From Shewanella eurypsychrophilus (GTDB lineage Bacteria; Pseudomonadota; Gammaproteobacteria; Enterobacterales; Shewanellaceae): DNA of 64,000 nucleotides. Location of the stretch: contig NZ_CP045503.2 of NCBI RefSeq assembly GCF_007004545.3, positions 1,520,501 to 1,584,500 of the forward strand, in the 5' to 3' direction. Shown in pieces: positions 38,308 through 45,874 of the stretch. The notes under the pieces were generated by a model. It was given only the letters and a program-made list of their open reading frames with translations. It had not been told where the DNA came from and did no database searches. Position 1 is the stretch's first letter; each line of letters opens with the position of its first letter. The position numbers were made by a program, and so were the translations under genes.

Positions 38308-38762
38308 ATTACCTCTGAAAACCATGATGACGTTACTCATTATTATAGTTCAGCATGGGTTTTTCAGTTGAAAAAGTGCCAATGCTAAACATTTTATTAA
38401 CAGCAATAATGTTGTTTTTCAATTTATGTATTTGTCTGAAATCCGTGCAACATCTACTTTTCTTTCTATTTTCCATCTCAATACCTCCGCAATGGCAAGA
38501 TGATAAATTTTCACTAACACTTGATTATTGCATGCAATATACAGTAGAAATAAAAAGAAACATTTTATTAACAATAAATACTGTTTAGTAAAAACAGAAG
38601 GCAAAACCAACAAATAGAGATGGATTATTAAGGACACCTGCCCACGTTGATGTGTGCAGTTAAAGGAATATCTACAGGTCGCATCGTAGATCTAAAGTGT
38701 CTTTTACTTATATGAATAGTATGTCCAGCGATAAGCTGACGCCGTTGCATGAGGTAAACCCT
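38308..38762. other. Intergenic, AT-rich
   Basis: Very AT-rich sequence between the YbaK-like gene (minus) and the collagenase gene (plus). Short frames here have no ribosome binding site or recognisable product. The collagenase frame is open back to 38697, but the 22 extra codons precede the signal peptide. A promoter for the protease is expected but not assignable. Confidence 0.45.
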
Positions 38763-41700
38763 ATGAGAAACATTATAAAACCAATAAATAGTATATCTTC
38801 CAAAAAGTCTATTCTAGCTAGCGCTATCTTACTTACCCTTAATCTAGGTGTGCTATACGCTCCCTCAGTGCAAGCGGCCGAGATGTGTGGCACTAAAACC
38901 TTAGAACGCCAAGGGGAAGTACCCGCTAATCAAGCTCATTGCATTACCGATTATGGTCATTATTTCTATGTGAATGTGCCCTATGAAAACAGCAATGTCA
39001 CCATTACCACATCTGGTGGTACTTTTAATGGCAGTGATGCCGATATTCTGCTTTACGATGGTGATGACTGGAGCGGAAATGTTGAGCTAAGTAGTACTAC
39101 CAACAGCACTAATGATGAGTCGATCTCCTTTGTATCCCGTGCAGGCTCTCGTTACTTTAAGATTAATGGCAACATACAAGAAACCACTTTAGAAGTCACA
39201 GTGACTGGTGGCGATGTACCTCCGCCAATGGGTGACTATATTGTTTTCGACACTAACATTCTTGTCGACCTTCCAGTGCCATCTATTTCATCAAAAGCAC
39301 AATACGGCAATGTGATCCCAAGCATTTTGGCGGCAAGCTACAGTGATTTTGAAGGTATTGCCAGTGGTGTAAATGACCCTATTGATGATGTGAGCGATGC
39401 AGTTCATTACCTGGCTAGCACTAACGATCTGACCGATCCAGATTTGAATCAACTGCTTTATTTCTTGGGGTCGTATAAGTATTACGCCCCTGCGATGTCG
39501 GATGCTGAGGCGGCTAAGCTGAGTATCGCACTGCAAGCGGTTGCGAGTATGACTGGCTTTTTAAGCACTGATGGCGGCGTTATCCAAGAAGGCTATGCCA
39601 AGGCACTGAATAATTTTGAGCGTGGTGCTGGTGCGGCTTATTTTAAAGACCAACTGCCACATCTGTTAGCGACGATTCAATATTACTCTAAACAGACAAA
39701 TCCTTTTGGCGCTACCAATGCCGGTGATGCGACAATGGCGCTACTCGGTGCCATAGGTTCTGCCGCGTACTATGGTGATGGGGCGGTCAAATCTGCCTAT
39801 AACAGCAATATGCTGGATGTGCTTTCTGTGATGCGCTCATTTGCCTTTCTAGGTGAAACCTCACTGGACATGAAATGGTCCACCGAAGCCGATAGGAAAT
39901 GGATCTTACCCCATACCTTTATCGCTCTGGGTAAGATCTCGAGCATAGCCACCGACGAGGCTAAGGCGCGTTTCGATAGCAGCATCCTAGAGGTTCATGG
40001 CAAGGTGATCCAGATTATCTCGGTTGAAACCACTGAGACCATAGTGACTAAGAACTACTTAGAGTCAGCGGGCCGTCAGTGTGAAGCGAGCGATCCCTTG
40101 TTCGGCAGCTGCGTCGTGCCACCTAAAGAGGAAGATATCTTAACTGTACGCCATGAGTGTACCGATAAGGTGGTTATCCGCGCGCAATCTAGTATTAGCC
40201 AGGCAACGTTAATCCAGTCTTGTGCCGATATTGCTCTGCAAGAGACAGAGTTCCATAACTTCTTTAATACAGGCGGCGTGCCAGTCACTGGCGATCAGAA
40301 CGATGTCATCGAAGTGGTGGCGTTTGCCAGTCCTGAAGATTATGAAAAATATGCCCCTGAGTTTTTTGGGATCAGCACAGATAACGGTGGTATGTACCTC
40401 GAAGGTACGCCGGAGAATGTCGGTAATCAGGCGCGCTTTATCGCCATGCAGTGTCCGGATTCTTGGGTGGGAACTTCTTGTCAGTATATCGACCAGATTT
40501 ATAATTTAAGACATGAGTATGTTCACTACCTCGATGGTCGTTTCATCAAGGCGGGATCATATGGATCATTCGATTATAATGTTTCCTGGTCAGAGGGGAT
40601 GGCTGAGTATATGGCCAATGGCGCCGAGCATACCCGTACTCTCAATGCCTTGAAGGGCGAAACGATTCCGCCTCTGTATAATCTGTTATTTATGTCCTAT
40701 GAGTATGGTGACTTGTATCAATGGGGCTATTTTGCCATGCGCTACTTGGGTGAGGAGCATCCGGATGAAGTCGCCTCTATCACAGCGGCGCTGCAAGCTG
40801 GTGATAACGCGGCATACATCGAAGTATTAAAAGGTGTAGCGGAGCGTACAGAGGCAGGTTTTGAAGCTTTTGTGCTAGCAAATTCAGAAACAGTGTCTCC
40901 AGCCGCTGCGGCGATCCCTGCAGCCGATACCATAGGTAGTTGCGCCCTGGCTCAGCAATATGTGCGTAAGGTCGATGCGAATAAGACTGAGTATTCGGTG
41001 ACCAATACCACAGATACGCCAGTGTCTCTGTTTTGGATAGATAACAACAAGGGCACGGCAAACTTCGCCAAGAACTATAAGACGTTAAACCTTGGTGAAA
41101 GCTACACAGCTTCAAGTTGGAGCGAAGGTGATCGTCTGATGCTGACCGATAATGCGATGAACTGTTTAGGGGTTGCCGTGATGGAGCCGGTTCAGAACAG
41201 TTTCTCTATCGATGCAGATTTAGTCAAAGATGTGGTGCCTGAGGCAATTCCTGAACAAGATATGCTGGGCAGCTGTGAGTTAGTGAGACCTCACCTTATC
41301 AAGGATGAATCCCATGAATTTACTATCACTAACACCACAGACTATCCGGTTCGTTTATTCAGAGTCGATAACCTGACGGGCAAGCCTAAGTATGCCAGTG
41401 CGGCAACTGGGTTTGATTTTGGTTACGGTACGCTCAATAAGGGTGAGAGCTACACATCCGATATCTGGTATGGCGATCGTCGTATAATGCTAGCAGATGC
41501 TCGCTTGAACTGTTTAAGTGTGGGTGTACTAAACAATGCCACTGCTGACTTTGTCATTGATGAAGCCATAGTTGTAAATGCTGCAGCGCCGGAAGTTATC
41601 CCTGCCGCTAATACCATAGGCAGTTGCGACTTGATGAATAAGCATCTAACAGGGCCTTTTGAGGCGGACTTCTCGTTTACTAACAATAGCGATACACCAG

Positions 41701-42980
41701 TGCGAGTCTATCGTGTAGATAATGAAACTGGCGATCTGAGTGAGAGCTTTGGTTTCACGACTCTAGCTACTGGCGAAACATACGATAGTGTTTCAACTTG
41801 GAAATGGTTTGGTAATCGCCGTGCGGCAATCACCAATACTGCTGGCCAGTGTCTAGGTGTTGCTGTGATGACTGAAGAAGGCGTCAGTAATGATTACGAA
41901 ATCACACAGGAGCTCATTGGTGGTGAAACGACGCCAGTGGACAGTGATGGTGACGGCGTAATCGATTCACAAGATGCCTTCCCCAATGATCCCACTGAAT
42001 CAGTCGATAGCGACGGTGATGGTGTGGGTGATAACTCAGATGCCTTCCCTAACGATGCAACGGAAACCTTGGACAGCGACGGTGATGGTGTAGGTAATAA
42101 TGCCGATGCTTTCCCTAACGATGCAACGGAAACCTTGGACAGTGACGGTGATGGCGTGGGTAATAATGCCGATGCTTTCCCAAATGATGCGACTGAAACC
42201 TTAGACAGTGACGGTGATGGCGTGGGTAATAACGCCGATGCTTATCCAAACGATCCTAATAATGGTGTCGTGCAGAGCTGTGGCGTCGCGACGATTACTT
42301 CAGGCCAGCTGACCCTTGAAAATGAAGAGTGTATCAGCGGTGGCAAAGGCAGTTTCTATGTCTATGTGGATGCTGATAACACAGATCTGTACATCACAAC
42401 ACAAGGTGGTGAGGGAGATGCCAACATCTACTTTAATGCAGATACTTGGGCGTCATCAACTAACGCGCAATCTAAGTCTGAGCTAAGTGGTAACAGCGAG
42501 AGTCTGCATGTGGTGGCTAATCGTGGCTGGCGTTATATTGCTATCGACACAGGCACTAGCTACTCAGGTGTCACTGTGAAGGTGAGTTTAACTGATTCAG
42601 GTACAACACCAGTCGAGCCGCCAGTTGAGTCAGAGCAGCCAAATGGATTAGCCGACACGTGCGCTACTGAAACTGTGCAAGATTATGGCAGCATCAGTGA
42701 CGGTGTTCCTATCTGTGTCAAAAATGGTCGCTCATCTTTCTATATCAATGTGCCAGCCGGTACTCAGAGTTTAACGGCAGAAACTGGACACGGCGTTGGA
42801 GAGCTGGAGTTATATGTTGGCGAGAGCTGGCCTGATGCGAGCAGCAACACTGGCGCATCAGCTAACTCTGGGACGATAGAGAGTGTGACTGTGAATCAAC
42901 CTACATCGGGTTGGTATTATGTTTCGGTGCAAAGTATGCCTAGCAGCGAAGATGTGACGCTAAAGGTCACCCTTAAATAG
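38763..42980 (+). CDS. Secreted M9-type collagenase with multiple accessory domains
   Basis: About 1405 residues. A signal peptide (to about residue 43, ending SVQAA) is followed by a pre-peptidase (PPC)-like domain (about 45-135). The peptidase M9 region carries the zinc motif HEYVH (about 584-588) and downstream SWSEGMAEYMANG supplying the glutamate ligand. Three about 95-residue repeats follow (about 720-1040), each with GSC...TNxxDxPV...D..G...GES...CLxVxV. A calcium-binding thrombospondin type-3 array (DSDGDGVG...DAFPND, about 1060-1165) and two PPC domains complete the protein. The ATG at 38763 has GAGGT upstream. It should be an extracellular metalloprotease acting on collagen-like protein. 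Confidence 0.88.
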   Translation: MRNIIKPINSISSKKSILASAILLTLNLGVLYAPSVQAAEMCGTKTLERQGEVPANQAHCITDYGHYFYVNVPYENSNVTITTSGGTFNGSDADILLYDGDDWSGNVELSSTTNSTNDESISFVSRAGSRYFKINGNIQETTLEVTVTGGDVPPPMGDYIVFDTNILVDLPVPSISSKAQYGNVIPSILAASYSDFEGIASGVNDPIDDVSDAVHYLASTNDLTDPDLNQLLYFLGSYKYYAPAMSDAEAAKLSIALQAVASMTGFLSTDGGVIQEGYAKALNNFERGAGAAYFKDQLPHLLATIQYYSKQTNPFGATNAGDATMALLGAIGSAAYYGDGAVKSAYNSNMLDVLSVMRSFAFLGETSLDMKWSTEADRKWILPHTFIALGKISSIATDEAKARFDSSILEVHGKVIQIISVETTETIVTKNYLESAGRQCEASDPLFGSCVVPPKEEDILTVRHECTDKVVIRAQSSISQATLIQSCADIALQETEFHNFFNTGGVPVTGDQNDVIEVVAFASPEDYEKYAPEFFGISTDNGGMYLEGTPENVGNQARFIAMQCPDSWVGTSCQYIDQIYNLRHEYVHYLDGRFIKAGSYGSFDYNVSWSEGMAEYMANGAEHTRTLNALKGETIPPLYNLLFMSYEYGDLYQWGYFAMRYLGEEHPDEVASITAALQAGDNAAYIEVLKGVAERTEAGFEAFVLANSETVSPAAAAIPAADTIGSCALAQQYVRKVDANKTEYSVTNTTDTPVSLFWIDNNKGTANFAKNYKTLNLGESYTASSWSEGDRLMLTDNAMNCLGVAVMEPVQNSFSIDADLVKDVVPEAIPEQDMLGSCELVRPHLIKDESHEFTITNTTDYPVRLFRVDNLTGKPKYASAATGFDFGYGTLNKGESYTSDIWYGDRRIMLADARLNCLSVGVLNNATADFVIDEAIVVNAAAPEVIPAANTIGSCDLMNKHLTGPFEADFSFTNNSDTPVRVYRVDNETGDLSESFGFTTLATGETYDSVSTWKWFGNRRAAITNTAGQCLGVAVMTEEGVSNDYEITQELIGGETTPVDSDGDGVIDSQDAFPNDPTESVDSDGDGVGDNSDAFPNDATETLDSDGDGVGNNADAFPNDATETLDSDGDGVGNNADAFPNDATETLDSDGDGVGNNADAYPNDPNNGVVQSCGVATITSGQLTLENEECISGGKGSFYVYVDADNTDLYITTQGGEGDANIYFNADTWASSTNAQSKSELSGNSESLHVVANRGWRYIAIDTGTSYSGVTVKVSLTDSGTTPVEPPVESEQPNGLADTCATETVQDYGSISDGVPICVKNGRSSFYINVPAGTQSLTAETGHGVGELELYVGESWPDASSNTGASANSGTIESVTVNQPTSGWYYVSVQSMPSSEDVTLKVTLK

Positions 42981-43106: not shown

Positions 43107-43283
43107 AAAAAAATGGCCCCGCCTTAAATAAGGGGAGCCACAAGAATTCTTATAAAGAATCTGCATATGAATGATTAAGCTTGCATAGCGCTAGCAAACA
43201 AACTTAACTCTTCATTTGGAGGCTCAAGGGAGCGTCCTAAAGGGAGGTGATGAACCATGATGAAAACATGTAGCACTCGCTAC
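43107..43283 (-). ncRNA. Predicted sigma-E-dependent small RNA, unit A
   Basis: About 177 nt. The predicted 5' end is a G at 43283, six bases after the -10 box. Order along the RNA: 5' hairpin GTAGC-GAGT-GCTAC; single-stranded TTCATCACCTCCCTTT, able to pair with ribosome binding sites; hairpin GGACGCTC/GAGCCTCC; a long stem (ATGAAGAGTTAAG with CTTAATCATTCAT) whose loop holds GCTAGCGCT; a hairpin around GATTCTT; and terminator TGGCTCCCC/GGGGCCA with a run of seven U. The layout matches Hfq-type sRNAs. Targets are not identified; the pyrimidine-rich segment resembles the pairing region of MicA as I recall it. Confidence 0.8.
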
Positions 43284-43289
43284 ATATAG

Positions 43290-43316
43290 TCAGAGTCATG
43301 GGATCTGGATAAGTTC
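43290..43316 (-). promoter_or_regulatory. Sigma-E-like promoter, unit A
   Basis: On the minus strand GAACTT (43316-43311), a 16-base spacer, then TCTGA (43294-43290). This matches the RpoE consensus GGAACTT-N16-TCNNA. Confidence 0.75.
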
Positions 43317-43444
43317 ATCGTTATGGGGAAAAACTTAGATTAATTAGAATTCATCATTGAATATTGTAGGTGCAGGGCCTGTTACCGCTAGGTTTTCATA
43401 TCGATTAGTACTTCTTGGTATGAATTTTAAAGCGATAAGAAGAT

Positions 43445-43620
43445 AAAAAAATGGCCCCGCCTCAAATAAGGGGAGCCACAAGAATTCTTATAAAGAATCT
43501 GTATATGAATGATTAAGCTGCATAGCGCTAGCAAACAAACTTAACTCTTCATCTGGAGGCTCAAGTGAGCGTCCTAAAGGGAGGTGATGAACCATGATGA
43601 AAACATGTAGCAGTTGCTAC
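43445..43620 (-). ncRNA. Predicted sigma-E-dependent small RNA, unit B
   Basis: About 176 nt, near-identical to unit A. The 5' hairpin is GTAGC-AACT-GCTAC, so the stem is kept while the loop differs from A. The TTCATCACCTCCCTTT segment is unchanged. The next hairpin reads GGACGCTCA-CT-TGAGCCTCC, improving pairing relative to A. The GCTAGCGCT loop and the terminator with seven U (A run at 43445-43451 on the plus strand) are intact. It has its own promoter, so it need not depend on read-through from unit C. Confidence 0.8.
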
Positions 43621-43626
43621 ATATAG

Positions 43627-43653
43627 TCAGAGTCATGGGATCTGGATAAGTTC
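43627..43653 (-). promoter_or_regulatory. Sigma-E-like promoter, unit B
   Basis: GAACTT (43653-43648), 16-base spacer, TCTGA (43631-43627) on the minus strand. Confidence 0.75.
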
Positions 43654-43781
43654 ATCGTTATGGGTAAAAACTTAGATTAATTAGAATTCATCATTGAATA
43701 TTGTAGGTGCAGGGCCTGTTACCGCTAGGTTTTCATATCGATTAGTACTTCTTGGTATGAATTTTAAAGCGATAAGAAGAT

Positions 43782-43957
43782 AAAAAAATGGCCCCGCCTC
43801 AAATAAGGGGAGCCATAAGAATTCTTATAAAGAATCTGCATATGAATAATTAAGCTGCATAGCGCTAGCAAACAAACTTAACTCTTCATTTGGAGGCTCA
43901 AGTGAGCGTCCTAAAGGGAGGTGATGAACCATGATGAAAACATGTAGCACTCGCTAC
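43782..43957 (-). ncRNA. Predicted sigma-E-dependent small RNA, unit C
   Basis: About 176 nt, near-identical to A and B, with the 5' hairpin GTAGC-GAGT-GCTAC, the same CUCCCU segment, the CUAGCGC loop and a seven-U terminator (43782-43788). Upstream of its promoter the sequence departs from that of A and B, marking the end of the three-copy duplication. Confidence 0.8.
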
Positions 43958-43963
43958 ATATAG

Positions 43964-43990
43964 TCAGAGTCCTGTTAACTGGATTAGTTC
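43964..43990 (-). promoter_or_regulatory. Sigma-E-like promoter, unit C
   Basis: GAACTA (43990-43985), 16-base spacer, TCTGA (43968-43964) on the minus strand. The last base of the -35 differs from A and B. Confidence 0.68.
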
Positions 43991-44073
43991 ATTATCCAGA
44001 TTAAAAATATTGAATTATTTTCGAGATCCTGTCATTCGGCTAAGTATTGGTTGGCTGCTGGGAAATGCCAGAT

Positions 44074-44287
44074 AAAAAAATGGCCCCGCCTTAAGAAGGG
44101 GAGCCATAAGAATTCTTATTCAGAATCTGTAGTTGGAAACAAGAAAGTCGATTAGCGCTAGCAGTCGATAAACTGTTTCCAGTAGATACAAAGCGTATCT
44201 AAAGGGAGATGATGATGAACAGTGAAACGGCTTGGACGGTGTAAGGCTCAATTAGAGTATAAAACGTCGAAGCCAGAAATTCGGTTC
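44074..44287 (-). ncRNA. Predicted sigma-E-dependent small RNA, unit D (diverged)
   Basis: About 214 nt with the same plan as A-C but different stem sequences. The 5' part has a larger stem (GGCTTCGACG with CGTCCAAGCC). Next come TTCATCATCATCTCCCTTT, then hairpin AGATAC-GCTTT-GTATCT in place of the GGACGCTC hairpin. Stem GGAAACA/TGTTTCC follows, topped by CGACTGCTAGCGCTAATCG. The hairpin near GATTCT and terminator TGGCTCCCC/GGGGCCA with seven U end the RNA. Stems changed on both sides while loop motifs stayed, which argues for a functional RNA. Confidence 0.78.
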
Positions 44288-44293
44288 ACTATG

Positions 44294-44320
44294 TATGAGT
44301 CACCGAAACAGGAAAAGTTC
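44294..44320 (-). promoter_or_regulatory. Sigma-E-like promoter, unit D
   Basis: GAACTT (44320-44315), 16-base spacer, TCATA (44298-44294) on the minus strand. Confidence 0.65.
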
Positions 44321-44370
44321 ATTATCTGATAAGAAAAAATAAGATTTTTTTCATTGAGGGAAAAAGAAGT

Positions 44371-44492
44371 AAAAAAAAGGGCAACACCAGTCTTTTATCA
44401 AGAGAGGGCTGCCTGATGATCATTTAAGATCAAGGGGACCGCGCTAGAAGTCCCAGGGAGAATGATGAACATGAAAACCTTCTTCGCTGTTC
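44371..44492 (-). ncRNA. Predicted sigma-E-dependent small RNA, unit E (short)
   Basis: About 122 nt, the most diverged and compact unit. The 5' stem is GAACA...TGTTC. The pairing segment TTCATCATTCTCCCT follows, then hairpin GGGAC-TTCTAGCGCG-GTCCC, where the CUAGCGC motif sits directly in the loop. A different terminator stem (GGCAGC...GTTGCC with inner TCTT/AAGA) ends in eight U. It lies about 55 bp beyond the glutathione peroxidase stop codon in the same orientation and has its own promoter. Confidence 0.72.
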
Positions 44493-44498
44493 ATATTC

Positions 44499-44525
44499 TT
44501 TGATGCTCTCAAAATGAATAAGTTC
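44499..44525 (-). promoter_or_regulatory. Sigma-E-like promoter, unit E
   Basis: GAACTT (44525-44520), 16-base spacer, TCAAA (44503-44499) on the minus strand, the closest of the five to the RpoE -10 consensus. Confidence 0.75.
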
Positions 44526-44579: not shown

Positions 44580-45065
44580 TTAGCTTAATAAACTAATGAT
44601 CTCTTTTTCTATATCTTCAGGCTTAGTGGTAGAAGCAAGTCGTGTTAACACCTTTCCTTGGCTATTAATTAAGAATTTGGTGAAATTCCATTTGATCCCC
44701 TTGCTACCTAAAATCCCCTTAGCCTCAGATTTGAGGTACTCATAAAGGGGATGCGCCTCTGGACCATTGACCTCTATTTTCTCAAAGAGGGGAAAGCTTA
44801 CGCCGAAGTTAAGCTCACAAAATGAGGCTATTTCACTTTCACTCCCCTTTTCTTGTGCCCCGAACTGGTTGCAGGGAAAGCCTAATATGACAAACTTTTC
44901 CGGACCATATTTTTCATAGAGAGCTTGTAGCCCTTTATATTGCGGAGTGAAACCACAGGCACTGGCAGTATTAACGATTAGAACAACCTTGTTTTTGTAG
45001 TCGGAAAGAGACACAGGCTGTCCCTGTATATTATTTACCGAAAAGTCATAGATGGAAGTTGTCAT
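44580..45065 (-). CDS. Glutathione peroxidase (BtuE-like)
   Basis: A thiol peroxidase of 161 residues that reduces peroxides using thioredoxin or glutathione. The active-site Cys lies in NTASACGFTPQYKGLQ (about residue 36). The partner Gln is in GFPCNQFGAQEKG and Trp in KWNFTKFLI, completing the Cys-Gln-Trp set. The start at 45065 has AGGAG at good spacing; the frame extends 18 codons upstream without support. The stop is shortly followed by the small-RNA array in the same orientation. Confidence 0.92.
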   Translation of the reverse strand: MTTSIYDFSVNNIQGQPVSLSDYKNKVVLIVNTASACGFTPQYKGLQALYEKYGPEKFVILGFPCNQFGAQEKGSESEIASFCELNFGVSFPLFEKIEVNGPEAHPLYEYLKSEAKGILGSKGIKWNFTKFLINSQGKVLTRLASTTKPEDIEKEIISLLS

Positions 45066-45334: not shown

Positions 45335-45874
45335 ATGAAAGCAAAACTTTGGGGAAGTATATTCCTACTATCGGGTATCTCAGTTACAGCAAGCGCTAAT
45401 GACTTTGGCATAGGCCTTAATGATGATGTGATCTCGACAGAGGTAAACCTCAAATTACAAAATAATGCCACGGCCGCATTGGGCTACATCTACTCCAATG
45501 ATGGTGGCCAATTGGCCTCAGGCGCGATGCACATTGCCCATGACGCTGGCATTCATCATTTTGAAATAGGTGCTAAATTCTCTTATGCTTGGGCTAAAGA
45601 GAGCGCAAATGGCAGTGCTGTGGGTATTGGTGGTCGTTATGTTATGGATCTAGGTTCCAAGCTTTCATTTCAAGCTTCTGGGTACTATGCTCCGTCGGTA
45701 CTTTCTTTTGGCAGCGTCGATGGCATGTATGAAGTAGACAGCAAGATCCAATTTCAACTGAATCCAAGCTTAGCCCTGTACACTGGGTATCGAAATATCC
45801 GTCTTCAGTATGATAATAGCAATAATTCTACCTTTGATTCTGGCTTCTATATTGGCGGTAAAGCCAGCTTCTAA
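45335..45874 (+). CDS. YfaZ-family outer-membrane protein
   Basis: A 179-residue protein with a signal peptide (MKAKLWGSIFLLSGISVTASA) and alternating beta-strand pattern through to a terminal Phe (IGGKASF), typical of a small outer-membrane barrel. The sequence style DFGIGLNDDVISTEVNLKL matches the YfaZ family. Function of the family is unknown; a channel role has been suggested. It is monocistronic, with a weak hairpin downstream at 45890. Confidence 0.8.
   Translation: MKAKLWGSIFLLSGISVTASANDFGIGLNDDVISTEVNLKLQNNATAALGYIYSNDGGQLASGAMHIAHDAGIHHFEIGAKFSYAWAKESANGSAVGIGGRYVMDLGSKLSFQASGYYAPSVLSFGSVDGMYEVDSKIQFQLNPSLALYTGYRNIRLQYDNSNNSTFDSGFYIGGKASF

What the first reader, a model, noticed from the sequence alone, without database searches (positions are those of the whole stretch)
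43107..44525. Tandem array of five sigma-E-driven small RNAs
Five minus-strand units each show GAACTT (GAACTA in unit C), exactly 16 bases, then TCTGA, TCTGA, TCTGA, TCATA or TCAAA, and a G six bases further on. Each ends in a U-rich rho-independent terminator. This is the RpoE promoter pattern. E. coli makes single-copy RpoE sRNAs (MicA, RybB, MicL); I know of no described array of five such siblings. It would be an amplified envelope-stress response in this organism.
Basis: partly seen in the sequence, partly recalled or inferred. Interest (0 to 1): 0.93.

Follow-up and report, generated by a model that had tools for sequence, protein, structure and literature searches.

The report
Envelope-stress small-RNA array in Shewanella
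Five repeated units in this bacterial genome (likely a Shewanella), each with an envelope-stress-type promoter sequence and a terminator-like hairpin, are predicted to make small RNAs that would likely block production of outer-membrane pore proteins, and all 117 same-genus genomes searched carry at least one such unit.

Summary
On the minus strand at 43107-44525, behind a glutathione peroxidase gene, lie five related units. Each has GAACTT/A, exactly 16 bases, TCWNA, a G seven bases on, and a hairpin with a T run. They are the only five matches to that motif in 64 kb (0.5 expected). The genome's own rpoE has the same -35 and spacing (-10 TCTAC), and GAACTT-16/17-TC is the published Shewanella RpoE promoter.

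The first unit (E) is a genus-core RNA: a covariance model finds it in 117 of 117 same-genus genomes and in none of 274 other genomes of the order. Three of its hairpins covary. Copy number behind gpx varies by species; this genome has at least two more copies elsewhere.

All five share a largely unpaired seed, GUUCAUCA...CUCCC, complementary to a Shine-Dalgarno plus start codon. Porin starts pair with it better than 168 control starts; in 20 of 20 species fetched, a porin often found near the cluster starts ATGATGA. TonB receptors are mostly not enriched.

Likely mechanism: RpoE-transcribed sibling sRNAs repress porin-class mRNAs, like MicA/RybB/VrrA, arranged like Listeria LhrC1-5. Expression, RpoE dependence and repression are untested. 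My searches found no printed description.

The parts
44371..44492 (-). Unit E, predicted 122-nt sRNA, the genus-core member
   Evidence: covariance model R1 built from it and seven relatives hits 117 of 117 same-genus genomes
44499..44525 (-). Promoter of E: GAACTT-N16-TCAAA
44456..44469 (-). Seed of E, TTCATCATTCTCCC
   Evidence: mean unpaired probability 0.67
44074..44287 (-). Unit D, predicted 214-nt sRNA
44294..44320 (-). Promoter of D: GAACTT-N16-TCATA
44204..44219 (-). Seed of D, TTCATCATCATCTCCC
   Evidence: mean unpaired probability 0.70
43782..43957 (-). Unit C, predicted 176-nt sRNA (A-type)
43964..43990 (-). Promoter of C: GAACTA-N16-TCTGA
43916..43928 (-). Seed of C, TTCATCACCTCCC, preceded by TTTTCATCATGG
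43445..43620 (-). Unit B, predicted 176-nt sRNA (A-type)
43627..43653 (-). Promoter of B: GAACTT-N16-TCTGA
43579..43591 (-). Seed of B
43107..43283 (-). Unit A, predicted 177-nt sRNA (A-type)
43290..43316 (-). Promoter of A: GAACTT-N16-TCTGA
43242..43254 (-). Seed of A
43107..43140 (-). Terminator hairpin and T-run of A (B and C nearly the same; D alike)
44583..45062 (-). Glutathione peroxidase gene upstream of the array; MR-1 SO_1563/cgpD is a cytoplasmic glutathione peroxidase too (orthology inferred)
   Evidence: PF00255, E 4e-44; unit E follows a gpx gene in the seven related loci read; SO_1563 from passages of PMC4336711

Best explanation
Window 43107-44525 (minus strand) holds five related units (E, D, C, B, A), each with a GAACTT/A-N16-TC promoter sequence like that of Shewanella rpoE and its own terminator-like hairpin, which are predicted to be transcribed by RpoE into small RNAs of 122-214 nt that would pair through a GUUCAUCA...CUCCC seed with the Shine-Dalgarno and start codon of porin-class outer-membrane mRNAs and likely repress them. 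Shown by sequence: units, promoters, hairpins with T runs, seed, conservation and covariation. Inferred: transcription, RpoE dependence, use of Hfq, and repression of targets. Unit E is the genus-wide and so probably ancestral member. D- and A-type members are siblings whose anti-start and anti-Shine-Dalgarno blocks sit at different distances, so they would suit different mRNA starts. The extra A copies probably arose by recent tandem duplication or gene conversion and would raise the dose.
For: Promoter: five of five units; 32 of 32 units found by a seed search in 12 loci have best spacing 16 when 15-17 were allowed, two of them with weak scores; among 74 units in the 30 best-scoring genomes spacing is 16 in 69 and 17 in 5. 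In 43 promoters thinned to under 80% identity, information is 1.73 bits per base in the -35, 1.29 in the -10, 0.40 in the spacer (segments were picked by their match to the motif, which inflates the first two). Own rpoE (TIGR02939, 334 bits) has GAACTT-N16-TCTAC, its -35 82 nt before the open frame. RNA: helices 2-4 of E pair in 100% of cells; 11 of 29 pairs have two-sided changes (shuffles 1.7, none of 500 reach it; slid structures 0-2). Targets: for 12 Porin_4 matches chosen by protein family alone against 168 control starts, duplex energies are lower, p = 0.011 (A), 0.0016 (D), 7.6e-5 (E), 0.0037 (G), also against 44 signal-peptide-like controls (p 0.0001-0.002). In 20 of 20 fetched species a porin often near the cluster starts with ATGATGA, 18 with ATGATGAAC; mean z against shuffled seeds -3.2 for E. 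Ten orthologues of another porin: mean z -3.75 for E. MtrB/PioB-type and FadL-type genes start the same way.
Against: No transcript data. Of 55 GATGATGAAC sites in the genome, only 9 met my start-codon rule, and 4 of those 9 are outer-membrane beta-barrel genes; 2 others of the 55 are sRNA units themselves. TonB receptors (30 of 37 matches, those returned as loci) are not enriched for D, E and G, only for A (p = 0.028 by energy, 0.0013 by shuffled-seed z). Some control starts pair as strongly (best -25.7 kcal/mol). Two Porin_4 loci (L147, L149) are near-identical paralogues and the starts of L144, L146 and L150 are doubtful; all were kept. Several of the 20 species share nearly identical porin starts, so they are not independent. 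The 5' helix of E, which would hide part of the seed, has no two-sided changes; the predicted fold of A-type units is poorly supported (3 of 32 pairs with two-sided changes). One of the 20 weaker E units lacks the exact seed (G023) and two lack CTAGCGC (G018, G113); unit D of genome G130 looks decayed; one porin orthologue (L253) does not pair with A or D.
Confidence: 0.74

Rival explanations
1. RpoE-driven sRNAs as above, but whose main targets are not outer-membrane proteins: the CUCCC block makes them broad anti-Shine-Dalgarno RNAs that damp translation of many mRNAs.
For: A-type seed ATCACCTCCCTTTA resembles the 16S rRNA 3' tail (recalled); A-type pairing shows the weakest porin enrichment; some unrelated starts pair strongly.
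Against: The seed extends past the anti-SD block into an anti-start GUUCAUCA block, and E and D pair better with porin starts than with controls.
Confidence: 0.15
2. Small RNAs made from another promoter (sigma-70 or another ECF factor), constitutive or under other control, with the RpoE-like motif coincidental.
For: No expression data; four further weak matches to the RpoE model exist in the genome.
Against: Motif conserved at fixed spacing across the genus; no sigma-70-type site at a predicted start; the published RpoE2 motif TGATCC...CGTA is not what is here.
Confidence: 0.06
3. A repeat family without RNA function (mobile or recombination-born repeat).
For: Near-identical tandem 337-bp copies; copy number varies among species.
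Against: Unit E in 117 of 117 genomes, covarying hairpins, promoter at fixed spacing; only two copies elsewhere in the genome were found.
Confidence: 0.02
4. The units encode small peptides or leader peptides (either strand).
For: Short frames exist by eye, e.g. MFSSWFITSL in A-type units.
Against: Single-base insertions and deletions among E and A homologues and base-pair-preserving changes; no formal coding test was run.
Confidence: 0.03

Closest known systems
MicA / RybB of enterobacteria and VrrA of Vibrio (sigma-E-dependent, OMP-repressing sRNAs)
   Same: Sigma-E-type promoter, intergenic, own terminator, predicted pairing at OMP translation starts; VrrA represses ompA by pairing with its 5' region and needs sigma-E (PMC2628432, start of abstract in a search listing). 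MicA and RybB recalled.
   Different: No Rfam match at the gathering threshold; seed differs from RybB's (recalled); two to six tandem siblings in the 30 loci counted instead of single genes.
LhrC1-5 of Listeria monocytogenes
   Same: Five homologous sRNAs induced by cell-envelope stress; a CU-rich loop binds the Shine-Dalgarno region (PMC5880928, abstract and passages).
   Different: Gram-positive host, two-component regulator LisR instead of RpoE; no sequence kinship indicated (no Rfam match).
CcsR1-4 of Rhodobacter
   Same: Four stress-related sibling sRNAs (PMC7074977, passages); tandem arrangement and CCUCCUCCC motifs recalled.
   Different: RpoH-type control and co-transcription (recalled); here each unit has its own promoter.
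OmrA/OmrB, PrrF1/2, AbcR1/2, Qrr sibling sRNAs
   Same: Homologous sRNAs, several in tandem (PMC4211561, passages).
   Different: Other regulators; the tandem cases in the passages seen are mostly pairs; none of those seen is under sigma-E.
RyhB of Shewanella oneidensis
   Same: An Hfq-dependent sRNA that destabilises a porin mRNA (omp35) in the same genus (PMC5826389, passages).
   Different: Fur-controlled iron response, not RpoE; not compared by sequence here.

Membership tests
Sigma-E (RpoE) regulon of Shewanella | GAACTT-16/17-TC promoter | tested here: met
Sigma-E (RpoE) regulon of Shewanella | Transcription depends on RpoE | not testable with these tools
   Needs RNA data
Sigma-E-dependent OMP-repressing sRNAs (functional class) | Stand-alone RNA with own promoter, conserved structure and terminator | tested here: met
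   for unit E; A-type structure weakly supported
Sigma-E-dependent OMP-repressing sRNAs (functional class) | Complementarity to translation starts of OMP mRNAs | tested here: met
   Porins met; TonB receptors not enriched for D, E, G
Sigma-E-dependent OMP-repressing sRNAs (functional class) | Represses the targets, with Hfq | not testable with these tools
   Needs reporters and an hfq mutant
MicA, RybB or any other Rfam sRNA family | Covariance-model match at the gathering score | tested here: not met
   0 matches in the window; best by E-value is GcvB at 23.6 bits against a cut-off of 42
Sibling sRNA arrays (LhrC type arrangement) | Several homologous sRNA genes in tandem | tested here: met
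Listeria LhrC family | Sequence kinship (Rfam match) | tested here: not met
   No Rfam match in the window; that Rfam holds an LhrC family is recalled
Listeria LhrC family | Control by LisR | not tested
   LisR was not searched for; the promoters are of RpoE type

The most novel reading that the evidence does not exclude
Shewanella replaced the usual RybB/MicA pair by its own genus-wide RpoE sRNA family whose siblings are tuned to differently spaced start codons, and which shuts off porins together with MtrB/PioB-type electron-conduit barrels, so that envelope stress directly switches off part of extracellular respiration; some lineages amplified it repeatedly into arrays of four to six.
Probability: 0.35. 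Interest if true: 0.86.

Novelty: new variant of a known kind. Interest (0 to 1): 0.72.

Why it matters
How RpoE lowers outer-membrane protein synthesis in Shewanella, a model for extracellular electron transfer, appears undescribed in what I could search: the RpoE paper whose passages I saw (PMC4336711) has no occurrence of 'sRNA' or 'small RNA', nor do three papers on its porins, EnvZ/OmpR or sigma-E (PMC4585640, PMC3160321, PMC8552667; term searches). A genus-core RNA with promoter, structure and testable seed sites makes the question directly testable in strain MR-1. The lineage-specific amplification is a natural experiment on sRNA dosage and on how siblings diverge.

Tried and rejected
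GcvB and suhB/mmgR Rfam hits: below their cut-offs, judged chance. The idea that all outer-membrane proteins are targets: not borne out for TonB receptors with D, E and G. Seed-complement searches for single best targets: the D pattern with two mismatches gave one clear start-codon hit, a porin; the A and E patterns gave none as clear. The excess of GATGATGAAC (55) over its reversed control (7) is not used as evidence, since codon usage could cause it. The plasmid search gave 53 records; the 20 listed match only the gpx part of the query. Peptide-coding reading rejected. Novelty searches: ten full-text searches; the 209 computed sRNA candidates of S. piezotolerans WP3 (PMC5471319; abstract, outline and passages seen) could not be read as a list, so unit E may be among them unnamed.

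Full report
WHAT IS THERE. On the minus strand between the glutathione peroxidase gene (44583-45062; PF00255) and a convergent M9 collagenase-type gene (38697-42980) are five units read E, D, C, B, A in the direction of transcription. Every one has GAACTT (GAACTA in C), 16 bases, TCAAA/TCATA/TCTGA, and a G at the seventh following base, at 44492, 44287, 43957, 43620 and 43283. The motif GAACTWN16TCWNA occurs five times in the whole window on both strands, and these are the five. Forty first-order Markov resamplings give 0.50 per 64 kb. Each unit closes with a hairpin and a T run, giving predicted RNAs of 122, 214, 176, 176 and 177 nt. A, B and C are copies of a 337-bp repeat; D and E share promoter, seed and CTAGCGC.

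OTHER COPIES. In the same genome a sixth unit (F, 71% identical, G000:C1:4254648-4254842) and a seventh (G, about 3 kb further on, GAACTT-N16-TCTGA) lie in a second cluster; more diverged copies may have been missed. In genome G014 (L021) and Shewanella sp. ANA-3 (L027), E, an A- or D-type unit, an aminopeptidase-like gene (by eye, not searched) and further units follow gpx in one block, so the two clusters of this genome look like one ancestral locus split apart (inference).

A GENUS-CORE RNA. A covariance model of unit E (R1, eight sequences) hits 117 of 117 genomes of the genus. In a search of 295 genomes of the order, 21 match, all of the same genus; the other 274, including the one listed genome of another genus of the family, do not (strict filters, so distant relatives could be missed). 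I fetched 20 of the 34 weakest-scoring of the 117: the promoter with spacing 16 is present in 20, the seed expression in 19 (not G023) and CTAGCGC in 18. On 35 aligned units (32 distinct), hairpins 2-4 pair in 100% of cells and 11 of 29 pairs have two-sided changes, against 1.7 in shuffles and 0-2 in slid structures; the alignment was fitted to the model, which leans towards it. The 5' helix has no two-sided change and is not supported. For 14 A-type units RNAalifold gives 32 pairs of which 3 have two-sided changes, which is weak.

ARRAY SIZE. In the 30 best-scoring loci a regular expression counts two units in 23, three in 2, four in 3 and five in 2. It missed one E in L213 (one search shows it) and one D-like unit in L217, whose promoter, seed and terminator look decayed, so the largest seen is six with one decaying. 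These loci are the best matches to a model built from this lineage, not a random sample. A-type copies within a genome are 93-100% identical: 95-97% in this genome, 100% (rounded) for the four of G130, 99-100% in G082, G010 and G118, 93-99% for a different subtype in G075. Between G130, G118, G082 and the group own/G003/G010 they are 81-92%. Own, G003 and G010 copies are 94-98% alike, so there within- and between-genome values overlap. The rest fits repeated, lineage-specific amplification or gene conversion.

WHY RpoE. The genome's rpoE (TIGR02939, 334 bits) has GAACTT-N16-TCTAC, the -35 starting 82 nt before the open frame. For S. oneidensis, Dai et al. 2015 (PMC4336711; passages only) report GAACTT-16/17-TC upstream of rpoE, a start site mapped by primer extension and induction of the operon by RpoE; their second factor RpoE2 uses TGATCC...CGTA, which is not the motif here. 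In 43 thinned promoters the -35 and -10 carry 1.73 and 1.29 bits per base against 0.40 in the spacer; these segments were picked by their match to the motif, so the contrast is inflated, and the fixed spacing is the stronger point. The sigma-70 scan shows no site at a predicted start.

WHAT IT LIKELY DOES. The seed, largely unpaired in predicted folds (mean 0.55-0.75 against 0.35-0.42 elsewhere), reads as an anti-start block (GUUCAUCA) followed at variable distance by an anti-Shine-Dalgarno block (CUCCC). The A-type has an additional GUUUUCAUCAU. A two-mismatch search with the D seed complement gave seven sites: D itself and six others, of which the only convincing start codon is a porin (Porin_4 and Porin_1). 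Independently of seeds, the 12 Porin_4 matches of the genome pair better than 168 control starts (p 0.011, 0.0016, 7.6e-5, 0.0037 for A, D, E, G), and better than 44 signal-peptide-like controls. Six of 12 porin starts carry ATGATG, against 8 of 168 controls and 4 of 30 TonB receptors. TonB receptors are not enriched for D, E and G; for A they are (p 0.028 by energy, 0.0013 by shuffled-seed z).

CONSERVATION OF THE TARGET SITE. A second porin (L141 type; by position perhaps MR-1 SO_1557, recalled) starts AAAGGA...ATGATGAAC here. I fetched its start in 20 of the 40 genomes: ATGATGA is kept in 20 of 20 and AAC in 18, with mean z -2.3, -2.4 and -3.2 for A, D and E; several of these starts are nearly identical. 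Comparing coordinates by eye, this porin lies within about 11 kb of unit E in roughly half of the 40 genomes or more, but tens of kb away or on another contig in others; here it lies 7 kb from F. Ten orthologues of the first porin have mean z -2.6, -3.9 and -3.75 for A, D and E (one of them, L253, shows no pairing with A or D), and 18 further porins -1.2, -2.0 and -2.4; L254, where the chosen frame was not the porin, was dropped from these means, and L243 is the query itself. Three MtrB/PioB-type genes start GGAGTC(G/T)ATGATGAAC (one of the three was scanned with Pfam), and a FadL-type gene starts GATGATGAAC. Part of this conservation is protein conservation, so it supports but does not prove pairing.

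WEAK POINTS. No transcript was seen. Of 55 GATGATGAAC sites, 9 met my start-codon rule (4 outer-membrane barrels, one frame without a Pfam match, one multihaem cytochrome, one radical SAM protein, one LysR-like by eye, one small frame); the other 46 did not, and two of these are the sRNA units D and G. Energies ignore accessibility of the mRNA. Control starts were called by a simple rule, and some pair as strongly as porins.

COMPARISON AND NOVELTY. It works like MicA/RybB/VrrA but matches no Rfam family at threshold. The arrangement resembles LhrC1-5 of Listeria (PMC5880928, abstract and passages), which answers envelope stress through LisR. The sibling review PMC4211561 (passages) lists tandem pairs and Qrr but, in the passages seen, no sigma-E array. 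In S. oneidensis, RyhB with Hfq already acts on a porin mRNA, omp35 (PMC5826389, passages), so the machinery is there. Ten full-text searches turned up no description in Shewanella; most subscription papers and all supplements were out of reach. I rate it a new variant of a known kind.

Noticed in passing
38697-42980 (+): 1427-aa M9 collagenase-type protease with a C-terminal PPC domain, convergent with the array.
   Followed up: partly
L217 1-1700 (-), genome G130: Array of six in which unit D has lost its GAACTT and exact seed and looks like a decaying sRNA gene beside four near-identical A copies.
   Followed up: partly
L147, L148, L149 (own genome): Three similar MtrB/PioB-type barrel genes (by shared N-terminus; one scanned) with the same GGAGTC(G/T)ATGATGAAC start.
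   Followed up: partly
L167 547-1509 (-): Multihaem c-type cytochrome gene that also starts GATGATGAAC; could be a further target.
   Followed up: no
45335-45874 (+): YfaZ-family gene next to the gpx gene.
   Followed up: no
44489-44494 (-): Conserved AUGAAC at the 5' end of unit E can pair with the seed's GUUCAU, possibly hiding it; no covariation support, and if the RNA starts at 44492 only GAAC of it is transcribed.
   Followed up: partly
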